A stretch of 29,118 nt of DNA from a virus. The stretch is from IMG/VR virus record IMGVR_UViG_3300007540_000072, positions 1 through 29,118 of that record, one strand, 5' to 3'. Below the pieces are notes generated by a model. It saw only the letters and a list, made by a program, of their open reading frames with translations. It did no database searches and was not told the DNA's origin. Each line of letters opens with the position of its first letter. Positions within the stretch are counted from its first letter, which is position 1. Positions 3,540-26,135 of the stretch are shown here, in pieces. The position numbers and the translations under genes were made by a program.

Positions 3540-6500
3540 ATGGCAGAACAACAATTTCAACCTCTTTGGACTAAAGAGCAGTTAAAACAGTTTACTACAC
3601 TATATGAAGGCAGAGGACATCTGCTTTCCCCTGAAAATAAGCAAAAGATAGAGCAGCACTCAGCATATTACAACGTCCCTTTCTATGAAGGTGAAGGTAG
3701 TATTATCAAGGGGATTAAGGCTGCTGGAGCGGGCATTGTTGACGCTCTAACGCTTAATCTTTTTGCGTCTCATGAGCCTCCAAAATCGCAATCTGAAGCT
3801 ATAGCAAAAAACATAGGGCATCTGATTGGTTTTGCTCCATCAATAATGTCTGCTCCATTAAGGGCTTTGGCGGGAGCGAGCAGAAGCAGAGGGCTTGCAA
3901 AAGCTGCAGGATACATTGCAAAGCAAGGTAATAAAATCTCTCCCTCAATGATTATTGCAGACAAGGCTACTAAGGTAGCTGATAAAGCCGCTAATGTTGG
4001 ATTAAATTTAGTTAATGCAGAGAAGATTAGCACGCTAACTGGCGCAAAAAAACTATTATTAGGTGGGCCTGCTAGAAGTATCGCTCGTCAATCATTTCAT
4101 CTTGGAGTAGCATCAGCAGCAGGAACTCTGCCTGATATTATTCAAGGTAATATTAATAGCACTTGGGAGGCGTTTAAAGGTGGTGCTACAGCTGGAGCTG
4201 CATTTGGAGTTATAGGTGAAACTATAGGCCCAATGAGCCATGCATCACTCAAAAAATTATTTGATAATCCTAAAACAGCAGCTCAAGGTAGTACTGCCCT
4301 AAAGGCTATATCAGGCTCTTTAGTGCAAGGGAATATGGCAGCCGGTCATGGCGCTACTAACCCAGAGTTAGTATATGAGTATCTTTTAGGTGCTTATTTT
4401 GGTGGGCATGCAGGGACATGGTATAAGACTCGAGCTCAAAAACTTGCTAATGAAATAGATTCTCAGAAATCTGGCACTGAATCTCAAAGAAAAGAATACA
4501 ATGAATGGGCAAAACAAACTGGGAAAGACTTACAGGCTCATTCAAAAGTAAGGGATGAACCTATCGAAGTTAGGGAGGCTTTGAAAGATTTACAAGCAAT
4601 GCCTGATTTTGGAGACCCTTATGATAATTTAACAGGAAATTATAAAGACCAGTTAAAGAAAGAGGCAGGCTTAAAGGATGTTCAAGTTACCCCTATCGAA
4701 AAAACTCCTGAAGGTTTTGTTGATAAAGGTGAATATGTTGCTGGCAGAAAAGTTGTTACTGTTACAGAAAGTGCCCTTAAAAAGGATAACTATATAGCAA
4801 CTACAGGTACTAAGGGTGACGCTGTCCTCTCTAATATTGCAGGGAAATATGGCTTACCATCATTTAATTATGTACCTCGAAGACCACCTAAAGAGATTCG
4901 TGCAGGGCTTGATAGACCTTTAAGCGAAGACCAAATACAAGAAGCTAATAAGCATATATCTAAAGCTTCTAAAAGCCTATCTGAGGTTGTTGAGCAGCCA
5001 GATGGTACCACAAAGACAATTCCATTGCCATTAGCCAATATAGACCCTTATAAGCGTACTTTAATCTCTAAGAATTATTGGGCTGTTAAAAATGCTAAAG
5101 AAGTATATTTGGTTACTGAACTACGTGGTGATACTGGCAATAAAATCGTTACAGATAGTATCCAGAAATGGCCAGCTCAAATGGCTAAGGATTTAGGAAA
5201 AGATTTATTTGTCTTGGATTCATCCACCAATAGATGGCATGAGTGGAATAAGCTTAGTAGACGTTTTGTACCGTTAGCCGACAATGCATCTCCCAAAAAA
5301 CCTTCTGATTCTATAGCCCTTTTAGGTGGAGATAGAGCTACTCAGTCGCGGGCTATAAGGCAGTCTATTGATACATGGCTATCTAGTCATTATAAGAAAA
5401 ACCCTATTGCAGGTGAGGTGGCTAGAAGAACTAGAAGGGTTCAAGCAGACTTAATTAAGGAAACTCAGCAATTAAATGCTCAAAAAGAAGGTATCCAGAA
5501 AGTATTAAAAGATTTATCTCAAGTAGAGCAGACCGATGATATTATAGCTCAAGTTAAGGGGTTAGAGAGCACCCTTGATAAGACTAATAAAGCTTTAGAG
5601 TTAATTGAAAGCCAGACTACTAAAACTTTTATAGAAGAGGCAATACAAGAAGAAGCTAAGACCAATGAGGTTATTGCAGAAAAATTAGATTTTGATACTG
5701 AAATAACAGATAAAGAAATTTATAAGACATCGATATATTTATCTGATAAATATTTTGAAGAGTTTTGGGGAGCTAGGGCTGGAATTGAAACATCTTACAA
5801 CCAGCATATTAAGAAAATAGAAATATCCCAAGCCATTGATGATATTATCTATAAGAAGCATGCAGAACGAGGCTCTAAGAAAAATCGCTCAGAAGATGCA
5901 ACTAAGGATATAGAAGATTATATTAACGATAAAGATAGTCAGTTTGATAAAACAGACTTTAAATTACCTGAGCAAGCTAGAGGGGATATTAGACAGGCTA
6001 TATCAAGATATAATTTAGGTGCCCCTGTTTACCATTTAGCGTCTGATGGAATTACATATTATAAAATCCCTGGCAATAATCAGGTCTCTAGAGGAGGGAC
6101 TCGTAAGAACCAATTAGAACCTGAAAAATATATAGAATCAACCTATAAGAATGCTGCAGAAGCTGCAGGTCTTGAGGTTAAAGAGCCTTTTATGTTCACC
6201 CTGGACCATGTAACGCGATTTAATAAAGACCGTGGCTTTAATGTGGATATGGAATTATCTAGATTTAGGCAACAAGCAGACCCTGCAGAGTACCGAGCTT
6301 TTATAAAAAATGTTGCGGAAAAAGCTGACAAAGAAGGTATGTATATATTTGGTGGGGCTAGCGATAAAGACAGGCTTTATTTTATTAAATATCACCCTCA
6401 AGCCAGTGAAACTGTTCAGAAAAATACTCAATTATTTTTTAATCAGCTTTCAAAGCAAGGGTTGTTCACTAAAGAGGACTTGACTCTTTCAAGGAAGCAG

Positions 6501-9500
6501 TCTGCTCAAGATGGCATGACTCGTAGTCAGCATGACAAAGCCTTGATATCTAATATACTCTATGATTTAAGTATGAATGGACAAACAATTTATGACATTC
6601 CTAAGTTTCTTAAGTCTGATGCTCAATTCGTAAAAGGCTCTGCTGGATTTAATAAACGTGCTCAAATATGGTTTACAAATTCATATCCTGCTGATGCTGA
6701 ATTTATCAAGTCTAATTACATTAATGATGCTGGACAGTCTCTATTAAATAAGAACGGTAAGTATAACACTATTATGGTTAATGACTTACCTGAGCATATC
6801 AGAAATAAGATGGATAAAAAGCATCCAGATTATGATAAAGATTTTACTTTTGCTAAAAATTCATTAGATAACATAGAGAATCCAGAAAATGTTGATGGCG
6901 CTATTATAGTTCCTGATAATTTACTTAATGTAATTAATAAAGACTTTGGGGTTCCTAAATCTGGCCAGAATAAGTCATTCATAATCTCTCCCGATAGAGA
7001 GCATGGAACATTACTTGGTAAGTATATGATGCATGGAGCAGGCCCAGAATTAAGTAAAATGATGGAATCTCAAGGGCTTCATATGATTATGCAAGAAACT
7101 GCTGTTAAGCAGCGTGGTACACGTGAAATAGGTGATTATTTTATTAAGGATGGGGAGCTTGATATACAAGCAAAAACTTATGAAATAAGCCCTGAAGATG
7201 TTAAAGGTTCATATGGCGTATATGGTAATGACCACTTCTTTGATACACAAAGGCTACCTAAACAAGTTATGCTTAATATGCTTGAGTCTAGCTTTAATCC
7301 AATGAGTCAAGATGTTATTAATGAGTCTTTTGATAAGATTATAGGCAATCGCTGGAATGGTGAACCAGAGTTTCAGAATAAGCTAAAGAATTATTTAGAA
7401 GATTCGGCAGAGGGAATAGAGCCAAGCTCTAGAATACCTAACTTAATTAAGAACATTGAAAAGATACCAGTCTTTGACCTTGTAGAGGCTGTGCGCTCTG
7501 AAAGCTCTCCTCAGTTAGCAGAAGCATTGTATCAGAAAATGCTTAAGGTTAATAAGGAAAATGTAGCTATTGAGCATAGGGATGGTGATATTAATTCAGG
7601 GCAATACAAAGAATATCTAACTGAATTAAATGAGTTTAATAGTATTACGGACCGGTTGATTAAAAATGCTACTGCTATAGCAGAAGAAGCTAGAAGCGCT
7701 GGAAGTAATATTACTGCCGATTCAATCTATAATCATAAGTTTATTCGAGACTTTAAAGCTAGGGCTGTACAAAGCTTTTTAATTAATACTGCAGCTAAAC
7801 CTTTTATGGGTAACTCTGGGGCTGCATATATGCGTCCATATGATAAAGCTATGCGTATCAATCTTGATAAGGCTAATGAATTGCTTGATTTAAATCATTT
7901 GAATGGCATTAATAAAAATGATGAAATATTCTTTTTAGATAATTTTCATAAAAAAGTGAAAATATATTTAAATGATGCTAGAGGGTCAGAGTATAAAAGC
8001 ACCCTAGGTGAAGTATTTTCTGACTATTCTAAGCTTCAATCAAAAAAGCGTAATAAAGCTGATAATGAGCGTTTAGCATATTTAGAAGAAGTTTTAACTG
8101 CTGCTACAGTAAGAGTGCCAATGGATTCAGTATCAGGCATGCGTATACTTAAATTTGGTGGCTTTACTGGTAGAGATGGGCATGGCATATTATTACATTC
8201 TAAGGCAATGAGAGCAGAAGGTGGAGCCGACCTTGATGGGGATAAAGCCTTCTACTATTTTGGCGGCACTCGTGGTATGTCTAAAGATATGATGCAAGAG
8301 TTTCATAAGAATAAAAAAGAATTTGAATATACTGATGCTAAAGGTGAAATTTATACTAAGGATAATAAAGAGGCTCTAATTAATCAGGATATTACTATAG
8401 CTGGGGTAAAGTATAAAAAAGGTACTCCTGTCAGGGAACTACTTATTGCGCGCGCAGAAACTGAGCAAGATAAAAATAAAATGGCATTAGCTGAAAGTTC
8501 ATTAAGCCATTATGCCCCCTCTGAACGTATACGTATATCTTCAGCTGCAGTAGATGGGCGTAATCAATTAGGTCCAGCAGTTTCTAATTCTCAATTAATG
8601 AAAGGTGCTTTTAATTCAATAGTCGCCTCTGGTGGTACAGATGTACTTAATTTTAAAGATATCTATCTTGGAGATATTGGTGTTACAATTAAAGCTAAAA
8701 ATGATAAGGATAGTGTTTTACTGCAAAGAGATATAAGTAGAGCGCAATTAGGCTTAGCATCTGACCCTATGGATGAGCTTGGTCTCTCTAGTATTAAGTC
8801 ATGGAAGAAGATTCTATGGGACTCGTACTTTGAGGTAATAGATGCCAAGACTAAGGATGGCAAACGAGTTCCTAAGGCTGAATTAGCTGCCCTTAAGGAG
8901 AGATTATCGCAGGTAGATGAGCTAGACTTTAGTTATACTAATTCAGGCTTATTCGGCGATTTTGTTAATCTAAATAAGGGGTTGTGGGGCAGAAATTATA
9001 CGGAAAATAGAGCATTTGATATGTATGAGATACAAGATTTATTAAGCTCTTCAATGAATATTTTAGAACGTAAAGGTGCCTCTAATTCATTTTTACCTAA
9101 AATTGGAAATCTGTTTGTTAATTTAGACTGGTCAGATTCTCCATTTACCCGACTTAACAAGCAAAAACTTTTATATTCATATATCCAGACTAATAATAAA
9201 TTAAAAGCTCGTAAGCCTTTACAGGAACTATTAGGTCGTTCAAGTATGAAAGTTCCGTATACTGAACAGATATCTAATATATTGGAAACTAAGTATAATG
9301 ATAGGGTCTATTCAATTTATCGACCGTCTGATAGAGTAGATGCTGCTGGTAGCGTTGATGTGTTTAATAGAATTATTAAAGGGACTAGATATTCTGATAG
9401 AGCAAAAGGAATTGAAGGTATTTCTGATAATACTACAGATGGCTTTCATTTACGACTTAAAATGCTTAATAAGATGGTGAAGCAGGGTGAAGACTTTATT

Positions 9501-12500
9501 GTTAATGATATTACTGATATGATAACCCTTAATCTTATTGATGATATTATGAAAACTAGCAATATCTCGCCTAAAAGATTTCAGGCTATTTCAGAAATGG
9601 TGGATTATCTTAAAAAGAATAGTTATTTAATGATGCGTGATAGGCAAAATCTTGAAGCTAGATTATCAAGCATCAAAGATAAGCGTATTCGTGAAATATT
9701 CAAAGGGGCTACTGATGAAATATTTAAAGGCGGTAAGGAAGTTAAACCTGGTGAAGACCCAATTAGAACATCTGAAATGGACCAAGTTGCGATTGACCAA
9801 CAAATCAAGCAATTTAGAAAAAAGGCGGGATTAAATAAGGCTGAAAATATGCTCTTTGACCAGTTGATGCTTGGGTCAATCACTAGAGGTACTAAGCTCG
9901 ATAAAATTGAAGCTTTTGAGTCTGAAGCTAAGAGAACTAAAAATAAAATTGCTTTAGATTATATTAAGAATTTAAGAAACTTAAATTCTAAAACAAACCT
10001 TGGTAGGTTAGGGTTTAGCAGCAGCGCTATTAATGATTCATCTGTTCGTTTGCATCTTAGGCGGTATATGGAAATGATGAATGAAAATTATATCCCTCTA
10101 AATAAAACTGAATTAGCATCGCTTGATAAAGCTCTTGGTAATATTATAGATACACCTCCATCTATGCCTAATGTTATATCAAAGATGGCCACGAATACTG
10201 GCTTTGAAGGTATTGACACTAAAGCTAGGCCTACTAAAAATAAAGAGCTTGCAAGCTTGGTATCAGAAACTGCTGTTTTATTAAAAAATCATCCTGATAT
10301 CGTTAAGAAAAAATCTGGTGAAGATTTGAATGAGTTCATTAGAGGATTGCCATTTATAAGAAAAGATTTCGATGCGATGAGTATTGCGGACGTATATAAA
10401 CTCAATGCATATTTAAAGCAGGTCAAGGAAGGTACTATATGGCAAAGAATTAAAGATACCTTTGGTAAGGATAAAAAAGCCCTTTCTTTTAGGCATTACC
10501 AACAATTACCTAGTACAGTCAGTAGAGAGCTTGAGGCTACAGAGATAAACCTTATTCGCAAAGAAGGGTATTTTACTGATGCTAAGGGTGAGTTGCAATT
10601 TGGTAAAATTAAGGTTCCTACTCAATTTATAGATACATTGACCAATAGTATAGGTAGAATGACCGAGATGGGGACTCAGGTTGGAGATAAGCTTGTTAGT
10701 AGATTCCAAGAAAGTCAGTTATTTTATCAAGGTGTTGAAGATGCAGCACGTTTATGGGAAGTTGCTATTAGACAGCGAGAATATGATGGTCGTCATGAAT
10801 TAAGAAGTATCCGTGAGAAGTTAGGTAAAGACCCTAAAGCTACAGAGCGTTCTATTAAATATATGGAACAAAATTTAAAGGATGCTAAGAAAGCAATAGA
10901 CTGGACTAAAACTCAAAATAAAAAATATTTAGTAAACCTCCCTGAAGGTAGAGTTGAGCGGACTGGAAAGCAGATTATAGACAGGATTAATAAAAATTTA
11001 ACTGAATATATGGAAGAAATGCATACCATTATTCGCGGAAGAGAAGAATTTCGTGGCGAGCAATCACCATATTTTATAGAATGGTATGATAAAGAGCAAT
11101 TATCACCTAAATACAATCATACAGCTTTTTTAAAGGATTTAGATACCTATCTTAATGGTCGTGTGCCTTTGCGCTGGAGAAAGGTTATGAAGAGCACTAA
11201 TGAATCAATCCCTAGTATATTTGGTATTGATGGCGTTAGAGCTATGATGCGTGAAATGCATATTGAATTTTTAATGGAAATAGGTAGAAATAAGGGTGGT
11301 GAAGTTGGAAAGAAATTTATTGAAAAGGCTCGTGAATTATCAGATTATCCTGTAAAGGAAACTGGAAAGCTATCCTTTGAATCATATTTCCCAAGAATGT
11401 TCTTTGAACCAGGTGTAGTTAAAAAAGGATTAAAGGCGGCTACACAAGAAATTATTAATGATAAGACGCTTACATCTGAAGCAAGGATTGATAAGTTAGT
11501 TAAAATTCAAAATAAATATAAACGACTTGATGGTGATTATTTCTTTGAAGAAATGGAAGATGGCCCATTATATGATTCTTTAACTAAAGCATTGCATGCA
11601 AAAGAAGAAGTTTCTAGTGAAAGAATGAAAAACTGGTTCAGCCTTGATGCTAGTACAGGTAATATGAGGAGCCGTGAGCATAGTACTGAAGGTTGGAGTG
11701 TTGCTCCTACTTCTGTTGAGGCATATGTTAGGTCATTAAGCAATACATATTTTAAAGGCCTTGCTGGGATGATATCTCGTAATATTGTTTCCAATCCTGA
11801 AACTGGTGTATACAAGAAATTAGTTAATAAGTGGGGGGTTGAGAATGCAGAAGCATGGACTGAATATGCTAAATTATATGTTAATGATGCTTTAGGTAAT
11901 CCTGTAACTATCTCAGAGAAAATGATGAATGACCCTAAAATGGCCTTGAAATATTCTCCATATGCAAGATGGGCAGATAATAGGGTTGCAGACAAACTAA
12001 GTAAATGGTCTGCTAAATTGGGTATAAAGGGGGTTGTTGATAAGGATGGCCAAATTTTAGGCGGAGTTAATGAGTATGATGTAAAAAGATTATCTCAAAT
12101 GGAAGCTAGATTTCAAATGGCTTCTTTGCTTGCTCATCCAAAATCAATGGCTGCCAACCTTATGGGTGGTACATTACATACCTTGCAAAGCTCAGGATTA
12201 AGTGCATTTAGGAATGTATTTAATTATGAATATTTACAAAATATTAATCCAAAGTTAAAAAGTCGCTCTGATGTTGAAGATATGGTAATGGACCATGGAG
12301 TTTTACCTCAATGGATGATATATGAATTAGGGTTGCAAAAAGAATTTCAAACTAATCAAGGTAAAGAAAGCCTTAAAGTTATATCTGATTTCATTAAGCG
12401 TAACCCTAATGCAAAACCAAAAGAATTAACAGAGTATTTAAAATCTATTGGCTCAGGCATTAGCGAAAAGACTTCTAATTTTGCAGCTAAATTTATGACT

Positions 12501-13271
12501 GTACCTGAAAGAAAGCTTCGTACCGATGCATTTATGGCTCATTATATTAAGGCATGGGAATCATTTGGTGGAGCTATTAAAGACCCTAATCATCCATTTT
12601 TAATTGAAATGGCTAAAAAGGGTGTTGAAGCTACTCAATTCCTTTATTCAGCTCCATATAGGCCTGCTTATGCAAGAACATCATTAGGAAAGGTAATGAC
12701 TAGATTCCAAATGTATGCATGGAACTCTGTTAAGCTACGTGGTGATGTGATGAGAAGACTGGAAGTGGCAGGATATAAGCCTAATAGCCCTGAGGGCAGG
12801 GAAGCAACAAGGTTTATTATGGGCGATATGTTTATGCTATCCTTAGCTAATATATTTGCTTATTCATTATTTGAAAATAACTTACCTCAACCTTATGGAT
12901 GGTTTCAGGATACAGCTGATTGGATTTTTGGAGATGAGAAAGAGCGAGATAAAGCTTTCTTTGGCACCTATCCTACAGCAATTGCTCCATTGCAAGCTAT
13001 TACACCTCCAATAGGCCGTGTTGGATTAATTATATCTAATATATTAAATGGGGATATGGAAAGAGTTACGGATTATTATATACATACAATGTATCCGTTT
13101 GGTAGAATGGGTCGTGATATTTATGGAAAAGGTGGGATATTAGAAGCCCCTATTAGGCTTGTAGATAAGTTAACTGGTATACCTTTGACCCAGATACAAA
13201 GAAAGACAAAAAGAATGCGTGAGCAGGAATCTGAGTTTTTATATCCTAAAGCATTTACAGGTGGATACTAA
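3540..13271 (+). CDS. Giant virion-associated protein (3243 residues) with DLDGD motif, candidate two-barrel RNA polymerase
   Basis: One uninterrupted frame starts at ATG 3540, with AAGGGG about 12 bases upstream, and fills a third of the window. Seen directly: an apolar/amphipathic N-terminal region (about 45-80), a coiled coil at about 630-705, and at residues 1564-1568 the motif DLDGD within GGADLDGDKAFYYFGG. About 40 residues earlier is RVPMDSVSGMRILKFGG. This order resembles the second double-psi barrel of two-barrel polymerases: DFDGD in cellular beta-prime, DLDGD in QDE-1-type RNA-dependent polymerases and DxDGD in the virion-packaged polymerase of crAss-like phages. A hydrophobic stretch lies near residues 3096-3115. 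The position after ejection-type proteins suggests that it travels in the virion and is injected. Polymerase activity is an inference; the rest of the chain is unrecognised and may be a multi-domain 'polyvalent' protein. Confidence 0.85.
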   Translation: MAEQQFQPLWTKEQLKQFTTLYEGRGHLLSPENKQKIEQHSAYYNVPFYEGEGSIIKGIKAAGAGIVDALTLNLFASHEPPKSQSEAIAKNIGHLIGFAPSIMSAPLRALAGASRSRGLAKAAGYIAKQGNKISPSMIIADKATKVADKAANVGLNLVNAEKISTLTGAKKLLLGGPARSIARQSFHLGVASAAGTLPDIIQGNINSTWEAFKGGATAGAAFGVIGETIGPMSHASLKKLFDNPKTAAQGSTALKAISGSLVQGNMAAGHGATNPELVYEYLLGAYFGGHAGTWYKTRAQKLANEIDSQKSGTESQRKEYNEWAKQTGKDLQAHSKVRDEPIEVREALKDLQAMPDFGDPYDNLTGNYKDQLKKEAGLKDVQVTPIEKTPEGFVDKGEYVAGRKVVTVTESALKKDNYIATTGTKGDAVLSNIAGKYGLPSFNYVPRRPPKEIRAGLDRPLSEDQIQEANKHISKASKSLSEVVEQPDGTTKTIPLPLANIDPYKRTLISKNYWAVKNAKEVYLVTELRGDTGNKIVTDSIQKWPAQMAKDLGKDLFVLDSSTNRWHEWNKLSRRFVPLADNASPKKPSDSIALLGGDRATQSRAIRQSIDTWLSSHYKKNPIAGEVARRTRRVQADLIKETQQLNAQKEGIQKVLKDLSQVEQTDDIIAQVKGLESTLDKTNKALELIESQTTKTFIEEAIQEEAKTNEVIAEKLDFDTEITDKEIYKTSIYLSDKYFEEFWGARAGIETSYNQHIKKIEISQAIDDIIYKKHAERGSKKNRSEDATKDIEDYINDKDSQFDKTDFKLPEQARGDIRQAISRYNLGAPVYHLASDGITYYKIPGNNQVSRGGTRKNQLEPEKYIESTYKNAAEAAGLEVKEPFMFTLDHVTRFNKDRGFNVDMELSRFRQQADPAEYRAFIKNVAEKADKEGMYIFGGASDKDRLYFIKYHPQASETVQKNTQLFFNQLSKQGLFTKEDLTLSRKQSAQDGMTRSQHDKALISNILYDLSMNGQTIYDIPKFLKSDAQFVKGSAGFNKRAQIWFTNSYPADAEFIKSNYINDAGQSLLNKNGKYNTIMVNDLPEHIRNKMDKKHPDYDKDFTFAKNSLDNIENPENVDGAIIVPDNLLNVINKDFGVPKSGQNKSFIISPDREHGTLLGKYMMHGAGPELSKMMESQGLHMIMQETAVKQRGTREIGDYFIKDGELDIQAKTYEISPEDVKGSYGVYGNDHFFDTQRLPKQVMLNMLESSFNPMSQDVINESFDKIIGNRWNGEPEFQNKLKNYLEDSAEGIEPSSRIPNLIKNIEKIPVFDLVEAVRSESSPQLAEALYQKMLKVNKENVAIEHRDGDINSGQYKEYLTELNEFNSITDRLIKNATAIAEEARSAGSNITADSIYNHKFIRDFKARAVQSFLINTAAKPFMGNSGAAYMRPYDKAMRINLDKANELLDLNHLNGINKNDEIFFLDNFHKKVKIYLNDARGSEYKSTLGEVFSDYSKLQSKKRNKADNERLAYLEEVLTAATVRVPMDSVSGMRILKFGGFTGRDGHGILLHSKAMRAEGGADLDGDKAFYYFGGTRGMSKDMMQEFHKNKKEFEYTDAKGEIYTKDNKEALINQDITIAGVKYKKGTPVRELLIARAETEQDKNKMALAESSLSHYAPSERIRISSAAVDGRNQLGPAVSNSQLMKGAFNSIVASGGTDVLNFKDIYLGDIGVTIKAKNDKDSVLLQRDISRAQLGLASDPMDELGLSSIKSWKKILWDSYFEVIDAKTKDGKRVPKAELAALKERLSQVDELDFSYTNSGLFGDFVNLNKGLWGRNYTENRAFDMYEIQDLLSSSMNILERKGASNSFLPKIGNLFVNLDWSDSPFTRLNKQKLLYSYIQTNNKLKARKPLQELLGRSSMKVPYTEQISNILETKYNDRVYSIYRPSDRVDAAGSVDVFNRIIKGTRYSDRAKGIEGISDNTTDGFHLRLKMLNKMVKQGEDFIVNDITDMITLNLIDDIMKTSNISPKRFQAISEMVDYLKKNSYLMMRDRQNLEARLSSIKDKRIREIFKGATDEIFKGGKEVKPGEDPIRTSEMDQVAIDQQIKQFRKKAGLNKAENMLFDQLMLGSITRGTKLDKIEAFESEAKRTKNKIALDYIKNLRNLNSKTNLGRLGFSSSAINDSSVRLHLRRYMEMMNENYIPLNKTELASLDKALGNIIDTPPSMPNVISKMATNTGFEGIDTKARPTKNKELASLVSETAVLLKNHPDIVKKKSGEDLNEFIRGLPFIRKDFDAMSIADVYKLNAYLKQVKEGTIWQRIKDTFGKDKKALSFRHYQQLPSTVSRELEATEINLIRKEGYFTDAKGELQFGKIKVPTQFIDTLTNSIGRMTEMGTQVGDKLVSRFQESQLFYQGVEDAARLWEVAIRQREYDGRHELRSIREKLGKDPKATERSIKYMEQNLKDAKKAIDWTKTQNKKYLVNLPEGRVERTGKQIIDRINKNLTEYMEEMHTIIRGREEFRGEQSPYFIEWYDKEQLSPKYNHTAFLKDLDTYLNGRVPLRWRKVMKSTNESIPSIFGIDGVRAMMREMHIEFLMEIGRNKGGEVGKKFIEKARELSDYPVKETGKLSFESYFPRMFFEPGVVKKGLKAATQEIINDKTLTSEARIDKLVKIQNKYKRLDGDYFFEEMEDGPLYDSLTKALHAKEEVSSERMKNWFSLDASTGNMRSREHSTEGWSVAPTSVEAYVRSLSNTYFKGLAGMISRNIVSNPETGVYKKLVNKWGVENAEAWTEYAKLYVNDALGNPVTISEKMMNDPKMALKYSPYARWADNRVADKLSKWSAKLGIKGVVDKDGQILGGVNEYDVKRLSQMEARFQMASLLAHPKSMAANLMGGTLHTLQSSGLSAFRNVFNYEYLQNINPKLKSRSDVEDMVMDHGVLPQWMIYELGLQKEFQTNQGKESLKVISDFIKRNPNAKPKELTEYLKSIGSGISEKTSNFAAKFMTVPERKLRTDAFMAHYIKAWESFGGAIKDPNHPFLIEMAKKGVEATQFLYSAPYRPAYARTSLGKVMTRFQMYAWNSVKLRGDVMRRLEVAGYKPNSPEGREATRFIMGDMFMLSLANIFAYSLFENNLPQPYGWFQDTADWIFGDEKERDKAFFGTYPTAIAPLQAITPPIGRVGLIISNILNGDMERVTDYYIHTMYPFGRMGRDIYGKGGILEAPIRLVDKLTGIPLTQIQRKTKRMREQESEFLYPKAFTGGY

Positions 13272-20790: not shown

Positions 20791-21450
20791 CTATCCAGCG
20801 CTATAAACAAGCTTATTATTAGGAAATGTAAAGATAATTTCACTATTAAATTGCTCATTATTCATCACCTTTTTCACTGCATTAGCTATAAATGCACCAC
20901 TCATATTTGAGCAGTAACTAGTAGCTTTTGCATTGCAGGGTTCACTACTTGCTGAATCATCAGAATACCAAGTATTAACATAATCCTGTAATCTAGGATT
21001 TTTAAGTATGTATTGACGATATTGCTCAGAGCCCATACGGCCATCAATCAATAAAGACGGCTTATTACCTCTTTGTAGAGCTATTTTCGCAGCCTCTAGT
21101 CTAGCTTGCATGCTATCAAAGCCTAATATTACTACATCACTCTCATTAAGAGGCTTGATAAACTCAGTGAATAGTCCGAATTGTGTATGCACAGCTACTG
21201 CAGGATTAATTTCCTTTAGATGTCTGTCTAATGCATCAACTTTTCTTTTACCCACATCTCTTATTACATAATGACTTACTCCGATATTCTGTACCTCAAC
21301 TTTATCAAGGTCATAGAGTACAAATTCATCTACTCCCATCCTTGCTAATTGAGTGGCTGCGGAACTGCCAATAGCTCCGCAACCTAAAATATGAAATATC
21401 TTGTCCTGAAAGTCATTTATCAGTCCACTACTTCTTTCATTAAACCTCAA
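20791..21450 (-). CDS. E1/ThiF-like activating enzyme, 219 residues
   Basis: N-terminal Rossmann motif HILGCGAIGSSAATQLARMG (glycine loop 23-28), then the acidic strand end FVLYDLDKVEVQNIG (D47/D49, N55) and FDSM (D112), as in the ThiF/MoeB/E1 superfamily that adenylates the C-terminal glycine of ubiquitin-like proteins. Candidate transfer cysteines are C172 and C180 (EPCNAKATSYC). The zinc-binding CxxC pairs of MoeB are absent, and at 219 residues the protein is shorter than usual. ATG 21450 overlaps the JAMM protease stop. Its partners would be the small beta-grasp protein and the E2-like protein upstream. Confidence 0.85.
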   Translation of the reverse strand: MRFNERSSGLINDFQDKIFHILGCGAIGSSAATQLARMGVDEFVLYDLDKVEVQNIGVSHYVIRDVGKRKVDALDRHLKEINPAVAVHTQFGLFTEFIKPLNESDVVILGFDSMQARLEAAKIALQRGNKPSLLIDGRMGSEQYRQYILKNPRLQDYVNTWYSDDSASSEPCNAKATSYCSNMSGAFIANAVKKVMNNEQFNSEIIFTFPNNKLVYSAG

Positions 21451-22424
21451 AACGGTATCTCCTCTGTTTTATGTTCGATATTTTCATAATAATCATCATC
21501 CCAATAGCTAATTATTGCATCTTCAAGACGCACACCATCAGTAAATGTGCTTACTGCAACATTATACTTTTTTAGCTTAGCATTTAGAGGCTTGATACCC
21601 TTTTCCCATGCATCTAGTGCGTCATTAGAGGTTTTCATTGAATCGCATAAATCAACTAGCTTGATTAAATCCTTATCTGCCTCATTTTTTACATTTTGAG
21701 GTATAGATGTAAAATTTACATGCTTTTGAGTATAGCTATTGAAATAAACACCACTTGAAATATCACCATAACCTCCATATCCGCCATAATAAGAGCCATC
21801 TGAATAATCATTTTCTCTATGATATCCATATGTTTTATTATTAACGCCTAATGGAAGGTAAGATTGTTCTCCAGGTTTAGCATATGTAAAAGTTGACGCA
21901 CTTTTAGTGCATTGTTCTTTAACTTCAGCTAATATTGCATCATCAATGTCTTCATCTACTGTTAGGAAGTTAAGTTCAACATTCTCTTCATGAAGAAATG
22001 GCTGAAAGAATTGAATCCTTAGCTTATATTCCTTCTTCAGATTAACAACCAATGAAACAGTCCAGTCTTTTGACGGCATATCTAATATAGTCGAATTATC
22101 AGTACCTGACCAAAATGCATCCATTGTATGATGGCTATGCCACCAACAAAAGCGTACATCTGGTCCATGTTTCATTGCAGTTTTTGCATAATACTGCGCT
22201 AATGCAGTTTCATCAAGGGTGCATAGGCTTCCTGATACAGTTTGTTCCATAATTACAGGTGTTTTTAGTACAAAATCACCTTCTTCATCTGGAACTACTA
22301 TCATTTGACCTGCAATCTCTGATTTAAACTCATTATATGATGCTGCAGCATAATTTATTACTTTCTGGAAGTCATCGGGATGTATCCAGAATTTAGTATC
22401 TTTATTTGCTTCTTTTTTAGTCAT
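21447..22424 (-). CDS. JAMM/JAB metalloprotease, 325 residues
   Basis: All JAMM ligands are present: E36 (SEIAGQMIV), then WWHSHHTMDAFWSGTDN with H96, H98, S106 and D109, i.e. HxHx7SxxD. JAMM proteases cleave ubiquitin-like proteins after their terminal Gly, maturing the precursor or removing it from targets. The small ubiquitin-like protein of this cassette ends GGK, so removal of one Lys would expose GlyGly. C-terminal residues about 180-240 are Tyr/Gly-rich, then helical. Start has AAGGAG; the stop overlaps the E1-like start. Only the zinc domain is recognised; the C-terminal half is unassigned. Confidence 0.88.
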   Translation of the reverse strand: MTKKEANKDTKFWIHPDDFQKVINYAAASYNEFKSEIAGQMIVVPDEEGDFVLKTPVIMEQTVSGSLCTLDETALAQYYAKTAMKHGPDVRFCWWHSHHTMDAFWSGTDNSTILDMPSKDWTVSLVVNLKKEYKLRIQFFQPFLHEENVELNFLTVDEDIDDAILAEVKEQCTKSASTFTYAKPGEQSYLPLGVNNKTYGYHRENDYSDGSYYGGYGGYGDISSGVYFNSYTQKHVNFTSIPQNVKNEADKDLIKLVDLCDSMKTSNDALDAWEKGIKPLNAKLKKYNVAVSTFTDGVRLEDAIISYWDDDYYENIEHKTEEIPF

Positions 22425-22432
22425 GTTTCTCC

Positions 22433-24118
22433 TTATAACCTGTTTGCAAAAGTAATTATTTCATTTTCTGGTGTTCTACCAGCTCTTTGACGAGCAATGT
22501 GATTAACTCGAATGATTTGAATAGATGTTAAGTCAAAATCTAAACCTAAATCATCTCTTATATATCTATAATAAATCTCTTCACATAACTTGAAGTGCTT
22601 TATAAAGATACTCGCATTATATTCTTTTAGGTCCATAATGTCTATAAATATCTTAGAAAACTCTGAGTCAGATGCAAAGCTATTACCCATACCCTCTACA
22701 CCAAATATATCTAATAAATCTCTATTAAGGTCTCTTTTAACCTTGTTAGCAGCTTGGACATAAAGTCTATTTAGATATTCTTCAAAATCTTCCATATCCT
22801 CGAACCTACTGAAGTTGATATTTGAGTATTCTAGCCATTTTTCCATAACGAAATGGTCCCATGCATGTTTTTCATCATCATCTGAAAATGAAAGAACCGT
22901 TGGCTCTTCTGTCCATCCTAGATATATATTACAGTCTTTGATAAGTTGGCAATTACTGCAGAATGTTTCTATGAAATCTTCTTTAGTAATATCATTATAG
23001 TCTTCAACTTGCATACTACATAAGCTAGTGCTTCCATGCCAATCATTATCATTAACCTGCAAAGGCTTGCCAAATACACTCTTATAATATCTGTTTAATG
23101 GATTGATATCATTTTTTGGATAGTATGATGACCATCTTCTAAGAAGTGGTATAGCAGGTATTATATTGCCAGATGCAAATAAAGATAAGATTCTCTCTTC
23201 AAATGTTCCAAAGCATGTATTACCTGTACCATATTCACTAGCACGTCTTCTTATTGATGCAGTAGGATTACCTGTTACAAATGGGTGCCTTAATGCTTGA
23301 TATTTAGGCCATTCATATGTTAATCCAGCAAAATGTTGATTATAAGCAATATTTATATCACCATTAGCAACTCTTCTAGATATAGTAATTGCATCTCGAA
23401 TGCTAATGCTTTGAGTTACCAATAAATCGCCATATTCATAGGAATAAGTTGTATCCCCTCTGCTATTAGTTATATCTACTACTATATCCTTAATAGGAAC
23501 TGCAATATTTATAAACCATTTGCTTGGGTCATCGACTAAATTAACACTTTTAATATTTAAGCTAGAATTAGTAATACGTTCTACATTACCATTTCTATCC
23601 ATATGAGGTAATGCTGGTGTACCTGCTGGTAAATTTTCAGCATAATTCCAACCCTTATTAAACCATGGAATTTGAGATATCTCTACTTTAATATCATCAT
23701 TGGCTAATACAGATTGATTTAAGTTATTTACCAGTGTATCTAATGCCAGTTGACCTTCTACATCTTCAGATTGAAAGAATTTAATACCTTGCTTTCTAAT
23801 CTCTTTTAGCTGGCCATCTAATTGTAATGCTCTAGCTAATACTCCATTCAGCTCATATCTTTCAGAGCTAAATACAGCTTTTATTGTTCTAGCTGATTCT
23901 AGCCTAGGTTGTGCAACACGTCTAGATAGTTCTTTAAATTTTGCATAACTACCTTGCTCCCATCTACCTGATTTAATAACCTTGATATCAGTTTGATACT
24001 TTGAGTTAAATTCGTCAAGCTTGTCTAAAAATGGACCTGTTAGTCCAAGCATATGCACAGCGATAGGAGGCGCTTCTATTGTGCTATGTTTTTCTTTTAA
24101 TTCCAATGTTTCTTGCAT
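22433..24118 (-). CDS. Large E2-like protein of a ubiquitin-like conjugation cassette, 561 residues
   Basis: Start at ATG 24118, six bases after GGAG. The central region reads KYQALRHPFVTG and, about 20 residues on, GTGNTCFGTFEERI (Cys at about 302), the HPxV...G..C.G pattern of bacterial E2-like (UBC-fold) proteins in ubiquitin-like operons. It is followed by the typical helical SLFASGNIIPAIPLLRRW. The N-terminal 270 residues (helix-rich then beta-rich) and the C-terminal 200 (CSNCQLIKDC then helices) are not recognised. A CxxCx5C cluster near 387-396 could bind zinc. It lies between the ubiquitin-like gene and the JAMM gene. E2 identity is inferred from one motif plus context. Confidence 0.6.
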   Translation of the reverse strand: MQETLELKEKHSTIEAPPIAVHMLGLTGPFLDKLDEFNSKYQTDIKVIKSGRWEQGSYAKFKELSRRVAQPRLESARTIKAVFSSERYELNGVLARALQLDGQLKEIRKQGIKFFQSEDVEGQLALDTLVNNLNQSVLANDDIKVEISQIPWFNKGWNYAENLPAGTPALPHMDRNGNVERITNSSLNIKSVNLVDDPSKWFINIAVPIKDIVVDITNSRGDTTYSYEYGDLLVTQSISIRDAITISRRVANGDINIAYNQHFAGLTYEWPKYQALRHPFVTGNPTASIRRRASEYGTGNTCFGTFEERILSLFASGNIIPAIPLLRRWSSYYPKNDINPLNRYYKSVFGKPLQVNDNDWHGSTSLCSMQVEDYNDITKEDFIETFCSNCQLIKDCNIYLGWTEEPTVLSFSDDDEKHAWDHFVMEKWLEYSNINFSRFEDMEDFEEYLNRLYVQAANKVKRDLNRDLLDIFGVEGMGNSFASDSEFSKIFIDIMDLKEYNASIFIKHFKLCEEIYYRYIRDDLGLDFDLTSIQIIRVNHIARQRAGRTPENEIITFANRL

Positions 24119-24130
24119 TGTAATCTCCAA

Positions 24131-24371
24131 ATTTGCTAAAAGGGGACGGACCAGGCAGGGACCCTCGGGTAATGATGTGGAAGAATCCCCTAATAGCGTT
24201 TCAAAACTGCAGAATAAGACGGATGGAGGGAGTTGTTGCGGGACCTCTTGGTACGTGAGTAATCAGCGGACTATATGAGTATCCAAAAAGGATTAATAGA
24301 CGTGTTATTTCATGGACTCTGGGTTGCGCGTAACTAATCGCAAAGATTTCTTATTCTACTCCAAAAGCGAT
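24131..24371 (-). other. 241-bp intercistronic stretch, GC-richer, no gene found
   Basis: Lies between the ubiquitin-like gene and the E2-like gene. It is clearly richer in GC than its neighbours (for example GGGACGGACCAGGCAGGGAC at about 24142-24161). Leftward there is an open frame of about 55 codons but with no plausible start codon. The 3' end holds the GGAG of the E2-like gene. A structured leader or RNA is possible; I see no long stem. Confidence 0.4.
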
Positions 24372-24596
24372 TTACTTACCGCCTTTTACTCCTTCAGAAA
24401 CGTGCGAAACCATCGCATCTTCTGTTAGAGGTGTACTGTCAACTGCAATTACCTCACCGACTGCTATAGAACCGGTTAAACCCAATTCTTCACGCAATTC
24501 ACCTACGGTTGTTGCTGTTGTTTCAGTATCTACAAAATTAAGACCACCATTCATTAGTTTAATAGTGATTCTTGTGATAGTTGTTTCTATTGCCAT
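24372..24596 (-). CDS. Ubiquitin-like beta-grasp protein, PRTRC protein C/ThiS-like, 74 residues
   Basis: ATG 24596 has AAGGAG upstream. The pattern is a beta-grasp: strand pair at 6-22 (TRITIKLMNGGLNFVD), helix VGELREELGL, strand GEVIAVDS, and a final strand DAMVSHVSEGVKGGK. It ends GlyGlyLys, so the activated C-terminus would be Gly-Gly after loss of the Lys. It resembles PRTRC protein C and ThiS-type proteins. With the E2-like, JAMM and E1-like genes just downstream it forms a complete conjugation set. It starts only 76 bases after the repeat array ends. Confidence 0.8.
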   Translation of the reverse strand: MAIETTITRITIKLMNGGLNFVDTETTATTVGELREELGLTGSIAVGEVIAVDSTPLTEDAMVSHVSEGVKGGK

Positions 24597-24671: not shown

Positions 24672-25095
24672 TGACAAAGTCATTAGATTTGATTAGTTGT
24701 CGAAAATTGATACATTTTATGCAGATGAGTTTATCAGCCAGTATGATACATTCATGTTCTGTGGGTTTATGTCGTCTTCTGATACATTACTTGAAGATGG
24801 AGTTATTCTCCTCCTTGATACATTCTCTGATTTTGGGATTCTGCTAAATCATGATACATTGGGCTTAGGTGGTGGTCTTGCCATAGCTGATACATTAAAG
24901 TGCCAATGGATTACTCCTTCTCCATGATACATTTGCTCTTCGTGGGATTCTTTCTCCGCCTGATAAGCCCCACATTTCTGCAGGGCTTGATACATTTGTT
25001 TATAGTGAGTTTATCTCTTAGGCTGATACATTTCCAGGGTGTGGGATGCTACGTCATAGTGATTCACTTCATTCATTTGGGATTCTACGTTCTGG
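24672..25095. repeat. TIGR-like array: twelve 36-bp units of two conserved and two variable 9-mers
   Basis: Read on +, each unit is block A (TGATACATT) + 9 variable bases + block B (consensus TGGGWTTMT) + 9 variable bases. A starts at 24708, 24744, 24780, 24816, 24852, 24888, 24925, 24988 and 25024 (all exact), with degenerate copies at 24672, 24961 and 25060. B starts at 24726, 24762, 24798, 24834, 24870, 24907, 24943, 25006, 25042 and 25078, plus a weak copy at 24690. Steps are 36 except 37 after 24888 and 27 for the unit at 24961, which has lost about nine bases. The variable 9-mers are all different. Period 36 with two 9-base guides per unit is the reported architecture of TIGR arrays (tigRNAs), and the adjacent gene is of the matching protein class. 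Confidence 0.9.
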
Positions 25096-25961
25096 TGGTT
25101 TAATCCTAATTTAGCCTCATGATACGGTGGGAAAGCTGGTAATCCTTCAATAGCCTTCCAATTCGTATACAAGTCAATGATGAACATCTTAATCATATAG
25201 CGTATAGCCATATTATGCTTATGTCCCTTAGATTTCTCTACATGAGCTGGCATATTATCTAAACGATGTCTATAATCGTCATAAACCTTACGATAAGGAT
25301 TATTTAATGCACCTGCTCTCAAGAATGAACTACCTAATACACCTACTAATTTAGACTTTAAGAATGGATTAAAAGATATACCTTGCTTGGTCTGCTCTTT
25401 ACCATCTTTATCTAAATAAGCTGATTCTACTAAATGTTCTTTCTTGCGAGAACGTCCAGCACCATTGACTACATCTAAACCTGCATATTTCCACATAGAA
25501 CTACTATATTTAGCTTTATGTATGTCAAATTCAGTTATCATTACTGATGCCATTGCTGGGCCAACACCTTTAACACCTTTTAAATAGTCTGTCCATATAG
25601 GATAGTCTGCTAATACCTTCTCTAATTGCTTAAAATGACGTGCTTCACTAGATTCTAAACCAAAGTATTGGTCTACTAATATAAGCTCAGTCATTGTTGA
25701 GATAAGGCCATTTTCAGCCTGACGTACCTTTCTAGGCAGTCTTACTACTCCTGCTGTTAATAATCTATACTCTTTTCTTAAAGTATCTAATATATTAATA
25801 GCTTCTTCAGGTGATTCTTCAGGTTCTTTTGAGCCTGGTTCAATACCTAATTTACATTTAAAATTAATAACTATACGATTACCAGTTGCTTGGCGTAGCT
25901 TTTGTATATCATATACGCCTCTAACAATGGTCTTTAAATTACTTATCATTTCTGTTGCCAT
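25011..25961 (-). CDS. Tas-like/IS110 Tnp-domain protein (no nuclease domain), 316 residues
   Basis: ATG 25961 follows AAAGGAG. Residues 125-165 read YLKGVKGVGPAMASVMITEF and MWKYAGLDV, the helix-hairpin-helix and GL(D/A) signature of the C-terminal domain of IS110-family transposases (Transposase_20). GRSRKKE near 171 sits where IS110 enzymes carry their Ser. The N-terminal DEDD RuvC-like domain is missing: residues 1-120 are helical. IS110 proteins bind a bispecific guide RNA, and Tas proteins of TIGR systems have a related RNA-binding (Nop) core. With a 36-bp dual-guide array starting inside its own 3' end, I read it as a nuclease-less Tas-like protein. The last 28 residues or so are encoded by array units. 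A stand-alone transposase remnant is the alternative. Confidence 0.8.
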   Translation of the reverse strand: MATEMISNLKTIVRGVYDIQKLRQATGNRIVINFKCKLGIEPGSKEPEESPEEAINILDTLRKEYRLLTAGVVRLPRKVRQAENGLISTMTELILVDQYFGLESSEARHFKQLEKVLADYPIWTDYLKGVKGVGPAMASVMITEFDIHKAKYSSSMWKYAGLDVVNGAGRSRKKEHLVESAYLDKDGKEQTKQGISFNPFLKSKLVGVLGSSFLRAGALNNPYRKVYDDYRHRLDNMPAHVEKSKGHKHNMAIRYMIKMFIIDLYTNWKAIEGLPAFPPYHEAKLGLNHQNVESQMNEVNHYDVASHTLEMYQPKR

Positions 25962-25984
25962 AGTTCTCCTTTAATTGCGATTAA

Positions 25985-26085
25985 AATAATGCAAGGTGCG
26001 CTAGCTGTCTTAGTAGGATTTCGTTCATGACAAGGAATCGTTAAGATTCAATCAGTATCATGCAAACACCATACCTTGCATTATT
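25985..26085 (-). ncRNA. Structured RNA candidate upstream of the tas-like gene
   Basis: Arms AATAATGCAAGGT (25985-25997) and ACCTTGCATTATT (26073-26085) pair perfectly over 13 bp and enclose 75 bases. Inside, nested arms pair too: CATGA (26026-26030) with TCATG (26058-26062), and GAATC (26035-26039) with GATTC (26045-26049), leaving a five-base loop. It ends 24 bases before the tas-like start, the place where IS110 elements encode their bridge RNA. It could be a guide-related RNA, a leader controlling tas translation, or a processing signal. Confidence 0.55.
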
Positions 26086-26135
26086 AGTTATTTATTTAGA
26101 AAGGAATATCACTTGATTCTGTGACTAAATATAAT

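What the first reader, a model, noticed from the sequence alone, without database searches (positions are those of the whole stretch)
24672..25095. Dual-guide 36-bp array (TIGR-like) in a phage
Twelve units share two conserved 9-mers (TGATACATT and TGGGWTTMT) in exact 9-9-9-9 spacing with two private 9-base variable blocks each. This is seen directly. It matches the published description of TIGR arrays (36-nt tigRNAs with two guides that read both strands of a DNA target), and the flanking gene is of the related IS110/Nop protein class. The third codon positions are also conserved and the 12-residue 'peptide repeat' of the + frame breaks at the 37-bp unit, so selection acts on the nucleic acid. 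Twelve guide pairs would specify up to twelve targets.
Basis: partly seen in the sequence, partly recalled or inferred. Interest (0 to 1): 0.95.

Follow-up and report, generated by a model that had tools for sequence, protein, structure and literature searches.

The report
Phage TIGR array with TasA protein
A phage carries a compact RNA-guided DNA-binding system of the recently described TIGR-Tas kind (an array of about eleven two-part guides beside its Nop-domain protein gene); the kind is known, but its near relatives show that whole guide pairs are replaced far faster than the protein gene and that the module swaps places with a ParB gene.

Summary
The 36-bp dual-repeat array is real and is a TIGR array. 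The adjacent gene (25961-25011, minus strand) is a Tas protein: it exceeds the NCBIfam TIGR_Tas cut-off, and its predicted fold matches solved TasH and TasR (Z 20 and 19). It starts where their Nop domain starts, so it is nuclease-less TasA. Edge is AATGTATCA and loop AGAATCCCA-like. There are ten secure guide pairs plus a doubtful last one, not twelve, and the 9-9-9-9 spacing is interrupted by a 10-nt spacer and a 27-bp hairpin insert. Of 90 Tas relatives, 81 have a 36-bp array nearby, against 1 of 680 control segments. Edge repeats covary at pairs 2-7 and 3-6. New here: (i) a phage 99.95% identical over the adjacent 2.2 kb has a ParB gene in place of the cassette; (ii) guide pairs turn over as whole units much faster than tas. 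Pairs with tas about 99% identical or more mostly share all their guides; at 93-97% they share 0-50%. Targets were sought and none rose above chance. Guide processing and DNA binding are inferred from the published family.

The parts
25011..25961 (-). tasA gene, 316 aa: solo Nop-domain Tas protein, no N-terminal RuvC or HNH domain. Homology to relatives ends near residue 290; the last ~26 codons are read from the first array units
   Evidence: NCBIfam NF052498 E 5e-33, 114.8 bits over cut-off 100; AF2 model pLDDT 76; VIA Z 20.1 to TasH 9w04 residues 63-298 and 19.1 to TasR 9mty residues 109-303; tail compared
24672..25095 (-). TIGR array, 11 units; edge AATGTATCA, loop A[GT]AA[AT]CCCA, 9-nt spacers
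   Evidence: strand
25060..25095 (-). unit 1: A CCAGAACGT, loop AGAATCCCA, B AATGAATGA, edge AGTGAATCA (overlaps the tas frame)
25024..25059 (-). unit 2: A CTATGACGT, loop AGCATCCCA, B CACCCTGGA (10 nt, CTACACTGGA, in L002), edge AATGTATCA
24988..25023 (-). unit 3: A GCCTAAGAG, loop ATAAACTCA, B CTATAAACA (also in L003, at a different array position)
24961..24987 (-). 27-nt insert inside the edge before unit 4: perfect 9-bp hairpin with GAAA loop (AGCCCTGCA-GAAA-TGTGGGGCT) followed by TATCA
   Evidence: fold -13.6 kcal/mol, z -4.6; identical in L003
24925..24960 (-). unit 4: A GGCGGAGAA, loop AGAATCCCA, B CGAAGAGCA (one base different in L003)
24888..24924 (-). unit 5 (37 nt): A TGGAGAAGG, loop AGTAATCCA, B TTGGCACTTT (10 nt)
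24852..24887 (-). unit 6: A GCTATGGCA, loop AGACCACCA, B CCTAAGCCC
24816..24851 (-). unit 7: A TGATTTAGC, loop AGAATCCCA, B AAATCAGAG
24780..24815 (-). unit 8: A AGGAGGAGA, loop ATAACTCCA, B TCTTCAAGT (shared with L003)
24744..24779 (-). unit 9: A GAAGACGAC, loop ATAAACCCA, B CAGAACATG
24708..24743 (-). unit 10: A TACTGGCTG, loop ATAAACTCA, B TCTGCATAA
24672..24707 (-). unit 11 (doubtful): ATTTTCGAC AACTAATCA AATCTAATG ACTTTGTCA; most of it is also present in Tas-less relatives L060 and L121, so flank or remnant
24705..26127 (-). exchangeable cassette (leader + tasA + array); L060 has a ParB_N gene at this place

Best explanation
A phage-borne TIGR-TasA system. Shown: a solo Nop-domain Tas gene, followed on the same strand by a dual-repeat array of ten or eleven guide pairs whose edge repeats can form the two base pairs seen in this family. 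Inferred from the published family: the array is transcribed with tas, a Tas dimer shapes each edge repeat for cleavage into 36-nt tigRNAs, and each RNP binds an 18-bp duplex site (top strand 5'-A-rc(B)-3', 0-2 bp gap), one spacer pairing with each strand. Further inference: having no nuclease, it acts by unwinding and bending the site and so blocking transcription or replication of competing mobile DNA, or of host genes. Fast replacement of whole A+B units between near-identical phages fits changing targets such as competitors better than fixed self-regulation. Membership is close to certain (about 0.97); the role as a DNA roadblock against competitors is the likeliest function, but only about 0.5.
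For: NCBIfam TIGR_Tas above cut-off; PDB sequence hits TasR and TasH; fold Z 20.1 TasH, 19.1 TasR, then 14 for IS110-family IS621. 81 of 90 Tas relatives have a lag-36 array within about 1.2 kb against 1 of 680 segments of Tas-less relatives; 84 of 85 arrays lie on the tas strand. A DNA-only scan for the edge repeat at 36-bp spacing found further Tas loci at 32-44% protein identity (L022, L028, L057). Edge positions 2-7 occur as G-C 523, A-T 462, G-T 360 and the non-pair A-C only 40 times; positions 3-6 as C-G 1187 and T-A 82; loop repeats keep only 2-7. Guide turnover. Cassette exchange with ParB.
Against: No target found: no match with 0-1 mismatch in 1.4 Mb of related phages, 2-mismatch matches no more than for permuted guide pairs, and exact viral-collection hits few and scattered. 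No terminator was found after the array. Box D here is A[AGT], not the UG reported for TasR arrays. No transcript or protein data. Fast turnover could also reflect recombination without selection on targets.
Confidence: 0.9

Rival explanations
1. TIGR-TasA as a regulator of the phage's own genes or of host genes: guide RNPs bind promoters or genes and time expression.
For: TasA lacks a nuclease, so blocking is the natural outcome; some guide pairs are conserved between window and L003.
Against: No guide pair of the window or L003 matches their own or related genomes with fewer than 2 mismatches; most guides differ between phages 93% identical, whose own genes hardly differ.
Confidence: 0.2
2. 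TIGR-TasA as an RNA-guided DNA-bending aid for recombination or integration, or for partition, related to the ParB link.
For: The cassette exchanges with a ParB_N gene at one locus; published tasA-ParB operons and the suggested aid to integrases (PMC12045711); L013 has tas, array and a gene with a ParB-like GNHR motif in a row.
Against: No integrase was seen among the window genes that were checked; ten different guide pairs are more than one integration site needs; the L013 gene gave no PF02195 hit.
Confidence: 0.1
3. A protein-coding tandem repeat (plus-strand frame) rather than guide RNA.
For: Plus-strand frames of 76 and 67 aa cross the array.
Against: Neither plus frame spans the whole array, which also holds 37-bp and 27-bp steps; relatives keep the nucleotide motif with different frames; pairing covariation on the minus strand.
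Confidence: 0.01
4. Degenerate, inactive array beside a functional or decaying tas gene.
For: One hairpin insert, one 37-nt unit, degenerate end repeats, no terminator found.
Against: Nine of eleven edge repeats are identical, the tas frame is open and conserved, guides differ between close relatives while repeats stay constant.
Confidence: 0.06

Closest known systems
TIGR-TasA, dual-repeat type (Faure et al. 2025, PMC12045711; e.g. Flavonifractor plautii TasA)
   Same: Solo Nop-domain protein; alternating 9-nt edge and loop repeats with 9-nt spacers; array downstream of tas on the same strand; number of units in the usual 5-15; edge-repeat pairing; phage location
   Different: Box D is A[AGT] rather than the UG reported for TasR arrays; one edge repeat holds a 9-bp GNRA hairpin; the array overlaps the tas 3' end; the cassette is allelic with a ParB gene
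TIGR-TasR / TasH (PDB 9mty; 9w04 series)
   Same: Same Nop fold and coiled-coil (Z 19-20), same array plan
   Different: No N-terminal RuvC or HNH nuclease: window residues 1-3 align to TasR residue 109 and TasH residues 63-65
IS110-family RNA-guided recombinases (IS621, ISCro4)
   Same: Shared Nop-like RNA-binding domain (Z 14)
   Different: The aligned part begins at IS621 residue 123-124, so the N-terminal DEDD catalytic domain has no counterpart; a guide array instead of a bridge RNA
Box C/D snoRNP (Nop5, Prp31)
   Same: Nop fold (Z about 7.5), two guides flanked by box C/D-like motifs
   Different: No fibrillarin or L7Ae partner seen beside it; guides in a tandem array
VIPR (PMC13142463) and CRISPR
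   Same: Phage-borne or prokaryotic guide RNAs from repeat-bearing loci
   Different: Different protein class (RAMP or Cas); GGY/NN repeats or single long repeats, not two alternating 9-mers

Membership tests
TIGR-Tas | Adjacent gene encodes a Tas (Nop-domain) protein of the TIGR clade | tested here: met
   NF052498 above curated cut-off; best PDB matches by sequence and fold are TasR/TasH
TIGR-Tas | Array of two alternating 8-12-nt repeats separated by ~9-nt spacers, usually 5-15 units | tested here: met
   9-nt edge and loop, 9-nt spacers (two of 10 nt across window and L002), 10-11 units
TIGR-Tas | Array next to tas and conserved with it in relatives | tested here: met
   81 of 90 Tas loci; controls 1 of 680
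TIGR-Tas | Box C at the 3' end and box D at the 5' start of both repeats; edge repeat with one extra covarying pair | tested here: met
   [CT]CA at the end of edge and loop; pairs 2-7 and 3-6 in edges, only 2-7 in loops. Box D is A[AGT] instead of UG in this subfamily
[quoted passage not shown]
   No terminator found after 24672 on the minus strand; seen in relatives L158 and L028
TIGR-Tas | Transcription and processing into 36-nt tigRNAs bound by Tas | not testable with these tools
   Needs small-RNA sequencing
TIGR-Tas | Tandem two-strand DNA targeting | tested here: inconclusive
   Target searches gave nothing above permuted controls (collection scans 59-61, 83)
TIGR-TasA subtype | No nuclease domain fused to the Nop domain | tested here: met
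   Model residues 1-289 align to TasH 63-298; residues 3-278 to TasR 109-303; no Pfam domain matched
IS110 transposase | N-terminal DEDD catalytic domain and C-terminal catalytic domain with bridge RNA | tested here: not met
   Alignment to IS621 begins at its residue 123-124 with window residues 1-2; no Pfam IS110 domain; array instead
CRISPR | Single repeat of 25-36 nt with similar-sized spacers and cas genes | tested here: not met
   Two alternating 9-nt repeats; the gene beside the array is a Tas protein, and no cas gene was seen among the window proteins scanned
VIPR | RAMP-fold Vipr protein with GGY/NN tandem-repeat RNA | tested here: not met
   The protein is Nop-fold; repeats are 9-mers, not 5-nt GGY/NN

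The most novel reading that the evidence does not exclude
TIGR-TasA of phages is a strain-level, exchangeable competition module with an adaptive-like guide repertoire: whole A+B units are gained, lost, duplicated and exchanged much faster than tas evolves, without any known acquisition genes, and the module alternates at one locus with a ParB-type gene that may serve the same competitive end.
Probability: 0.35. Interest if true: 0.8.

Novelty: new member of a known kind. Interest (0 to 1): 0.5.

Why it matters
TIGR-Tas was described in 2025 and three questions were left open: the natural targets, how arrays grow and change, and what nuclease-less TasA does. This locus and its relatives do not give the targets, but they make the second question measurable: closely related phages that differ in whole guide pairs, arrays with duplicated units, one array of about 102 units, and a phage pair identical but for 1 base in 2.2 kb of adjacent sequence in which the TIGR cassette is swapped for a ParB gene. 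Such pairs are natural comparisons for a gain- or loss-of-function test.

Tried and rejected
Targets: window and L003 guide pairs were searched against all held loci in the published geometry and three control geometries; no 0-1 mismatch hits, and the apparent excess of 2-mismatch hits (15 against 7-8) shrank to the range of permuted pairings (12 against 4, 11, 1, 9). Larger arrays (L028, L057, L004, L007, L009, L022) also gave nothing above permutation. Four exact scans of the viral collection with guide pairs 3, 8, 4 and 10 gave 1, 7, 10 and 2 stretches; the ten for pair 4 include one homologous site repeated in eight related contigs, so about three independent sites. By my own estimate from the collection's size a few such hits per scan are expected by chance. 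Pfam and Rfam were uninformative for Tas and the array. The plus-strand reading was rejected. Looking for a ParB gene by PF02195 in L013, L022, L028 and L057 found none. The L004/L009 spacer-duplication signal was tested in the window array and is absent there. A preference of shared units for the distal end of arrays was seen by eye only and not tested.

Full report
Observation. The array at 24672-25095 is real. Lag-36 identity is 177 of 388 bases against 112 +/- 10 in equal windows elsewhere (maximum 139) and at most 149 in 5000 first-order Markov resamples. Read on the minus strand the unit is edge AATGTATCA, spacer A, loop AGAATCCCA or ATAAACCCA, spacer B. Eleven units can be parsed; ten are secure. 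The regular 9-9-9-9 plan is broken by one 10-nt spacer (unit 5) and by a 27-nt insert at 24987-24961, which is a perfect 9-bp hairpin with a GAAA loop followed by a second TATCA. The last unit is doubtful because most of its sequence also follows the ParB gene in relatives that have no array.

The neighbour gene. The 316-aa product of 25961-25011 (minus) exceeds the curated cut-off of NCBIfam NF052498, TIGR-Tas system RNA-guided endonuclease; its PDB sequence relatives include TasR and TasH. An AlphaFold2 model from twelve relatives (mean pLDDT 76) matches TasH at Z 20.1 and TasR at Z 19.1, then IS110-family recombinases at Z 14 and Nop5/Prp31 at about 7.5, the last within the range that can be mere common arrangement. 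The aligned part starts at TasH residue 63 and TasR residue 109, so the window protein lacks their N-terminal nucleases: it is TasA, and the word endonuclease in the family name does not apply.

Which strand. In relatives the array sits beside tas on the same strand and the repeats typically end in [CT]CA, the box C of the family. Of 85 arrays judged by that rule alone, 84 are on the tas strand; the window scores 18 on minus and 0 on plus.

Independent support. 81 of 90 Tas loci from viral and cellular collections have a lag-36 array within about 1.2 kb (59 downstream only, 15 upstream only, 7 both), while 1 of 680 segments from Tas-less relatives passes the same test. A scan by DNA alone for two edge repeats 36 bp apart returned 40 stretches, among them three further Tas loci at 32-44% protein identity, one in a 243-kb phage contig. 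Across about 1450 edge repeats, positions 2-7 are G-C, A-T or G-T in 93% of cases against 80% expected, with the mismatch A-C in only 40; positions 3-6 are paired in 92% against 83%; loop repeats keep 2-7 but not 3-6. These counts include related arrays and are not independent events, but the pattern is that of the TasR structure, where the edge has one more pair than the loop (PMC12045711). In the window's edge the pairs are A2-U7 and U3-A6. Box D is A[AGT] here, not UG; the paper allows such divergence.

Cassette exchange. L060 is 99.95% identical to the window over 2193 bases next to the cassette and 99.7% over 11 kb, yet has, in place of window 24705-26127, a 230-aa ParB_N protein gene. 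The more distant L121 has the same ParB gene at the same place (83% nucleotide identity between the two ParB genes), while L002 and L003 carry tas. L060 groups inside the tas-bearing set by backbone (99.95% to the window, 99.8% to L002, 92.7% to L003), so the place has probably changed hands at least twice. The published work reports tasA-ParB operons; here the two appear as alternatives. L060 is a single contig that reaches only about 110 bases past the cassette on one side, but L121 shows the same arrangement independently. No Tas gene was found in the L121 contig (47.6 kb) or in seven other contigs of this phage family.

Guide turnover. Between window and L003 (backbone 93%, tas protein 94%) only three of the ten secure guide pairs are shared, one of them with a single base change and one at a different position. 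Over 39 pairs of close Tas loci, those with tas 98.9% identical or more share nearly all spacers; at 98.3-98.8% they share about 23-51%; at 93-97.5% mostly 0-50%, with one pair (L157/L204, 97.5%) sharing 20 of 22. Point mutation at those distances would leave nearly all 9-mers within one mismatch, so units are replaced. A and B change together: 45 units share both, 13 share one, 101 share neither. Two arrays show duplicated units with diverging spacers (L004: 14 near-identical spacer pairs against 2.7 in shuffles; L009: 7 against 3.3); the window array does not. Some pairs compare overlapping sets of contigs, so they are not independent.

Targets. None found. Details and controls are in the tried-and-rejected field. 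This is an absence in the DNA held here, not evidence that targets do not exist.

Mechanism. Shown: gene, fold, array, strand, pairing pattern, exchange, turnover. Inferred from PMC12045711: 36-nt tigRNAs, a Tas dimer, two-strand pairing to 5'-A-rc(B)-3'. That orientation is my deduction from the reported 3' overhangs. Inferred further: with no nuclease, binding blocks transcription or replication of competing mobile DNA. Turnover argues mildly for moving targets, but recombination without selection would look alike.

Comparison and novelty. All testable defining features of TIGR-Tas are met except the terminator (inconclusive); processing could not be tested and target search was inconclusive. 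It is a new TasA member with some local variation. The exchange with ParB and the measured turnover were not found in the sections of the TIGR-Tas paper that I read, but supplements and subscription papers were not available, so priority is not claimed.

Noticed in passing
window 20791-24596 (minus): Four-gene run, conserved in order in about ten relatives: 74-aa protein ending VKGGK (ubiquitin-like?), 565-aa protein of unknown family (E2-like is a guess), JAB-like peptidase (below Pfam cut-off), ThiF/E1-like enzyme. Resembles a ubiquitin-like conjugation operon in a phage.
   Followed up: partly
L028 2694-6457: TIGR array of about 102 full units (3.8 kb) with the same edge repeat, stem-loop plus T-run (terminator-like by eye) before and after it; the published usual size is 5-15 units.
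   Followed up: partly
L004 array near 5600-5870; L009 array: Adjacent or next-but-one units with both spacers nearly identical, suggesting growth by unit duplication followed by spacer change.
   Followed up: partly
window 24961-24987; same in L003: Perfect 9-bp GNRA hairpin inside one edge repeat of a dual-repeat array, perhaps a step between dual-repeat and stem-loop arrays.
   Followed up: partly
window 24122-24371: 250-base noncoding gap between two genes of the operon, no Rfam family at gathering threshold; looks structured, not tested.
   Followed up: no
window 25988-25997 and 26073-26082: 10-bp inverted repeat (AATGCAAGGT / ACCTTGCATT) in the leader just upstream of tasA, part of the exchanged cassette (read by eye).
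   Followed up: no
window 25011-25095; also L003, L169: The tas reading frame runs on into the first array units, so changes of guides change the protein's C-terminal tail.
   Followed up: partly
window 3540-13271: Single 3243-aa open reading frame of unknown function taking a third of the contig; not examined.
   Followed up: no
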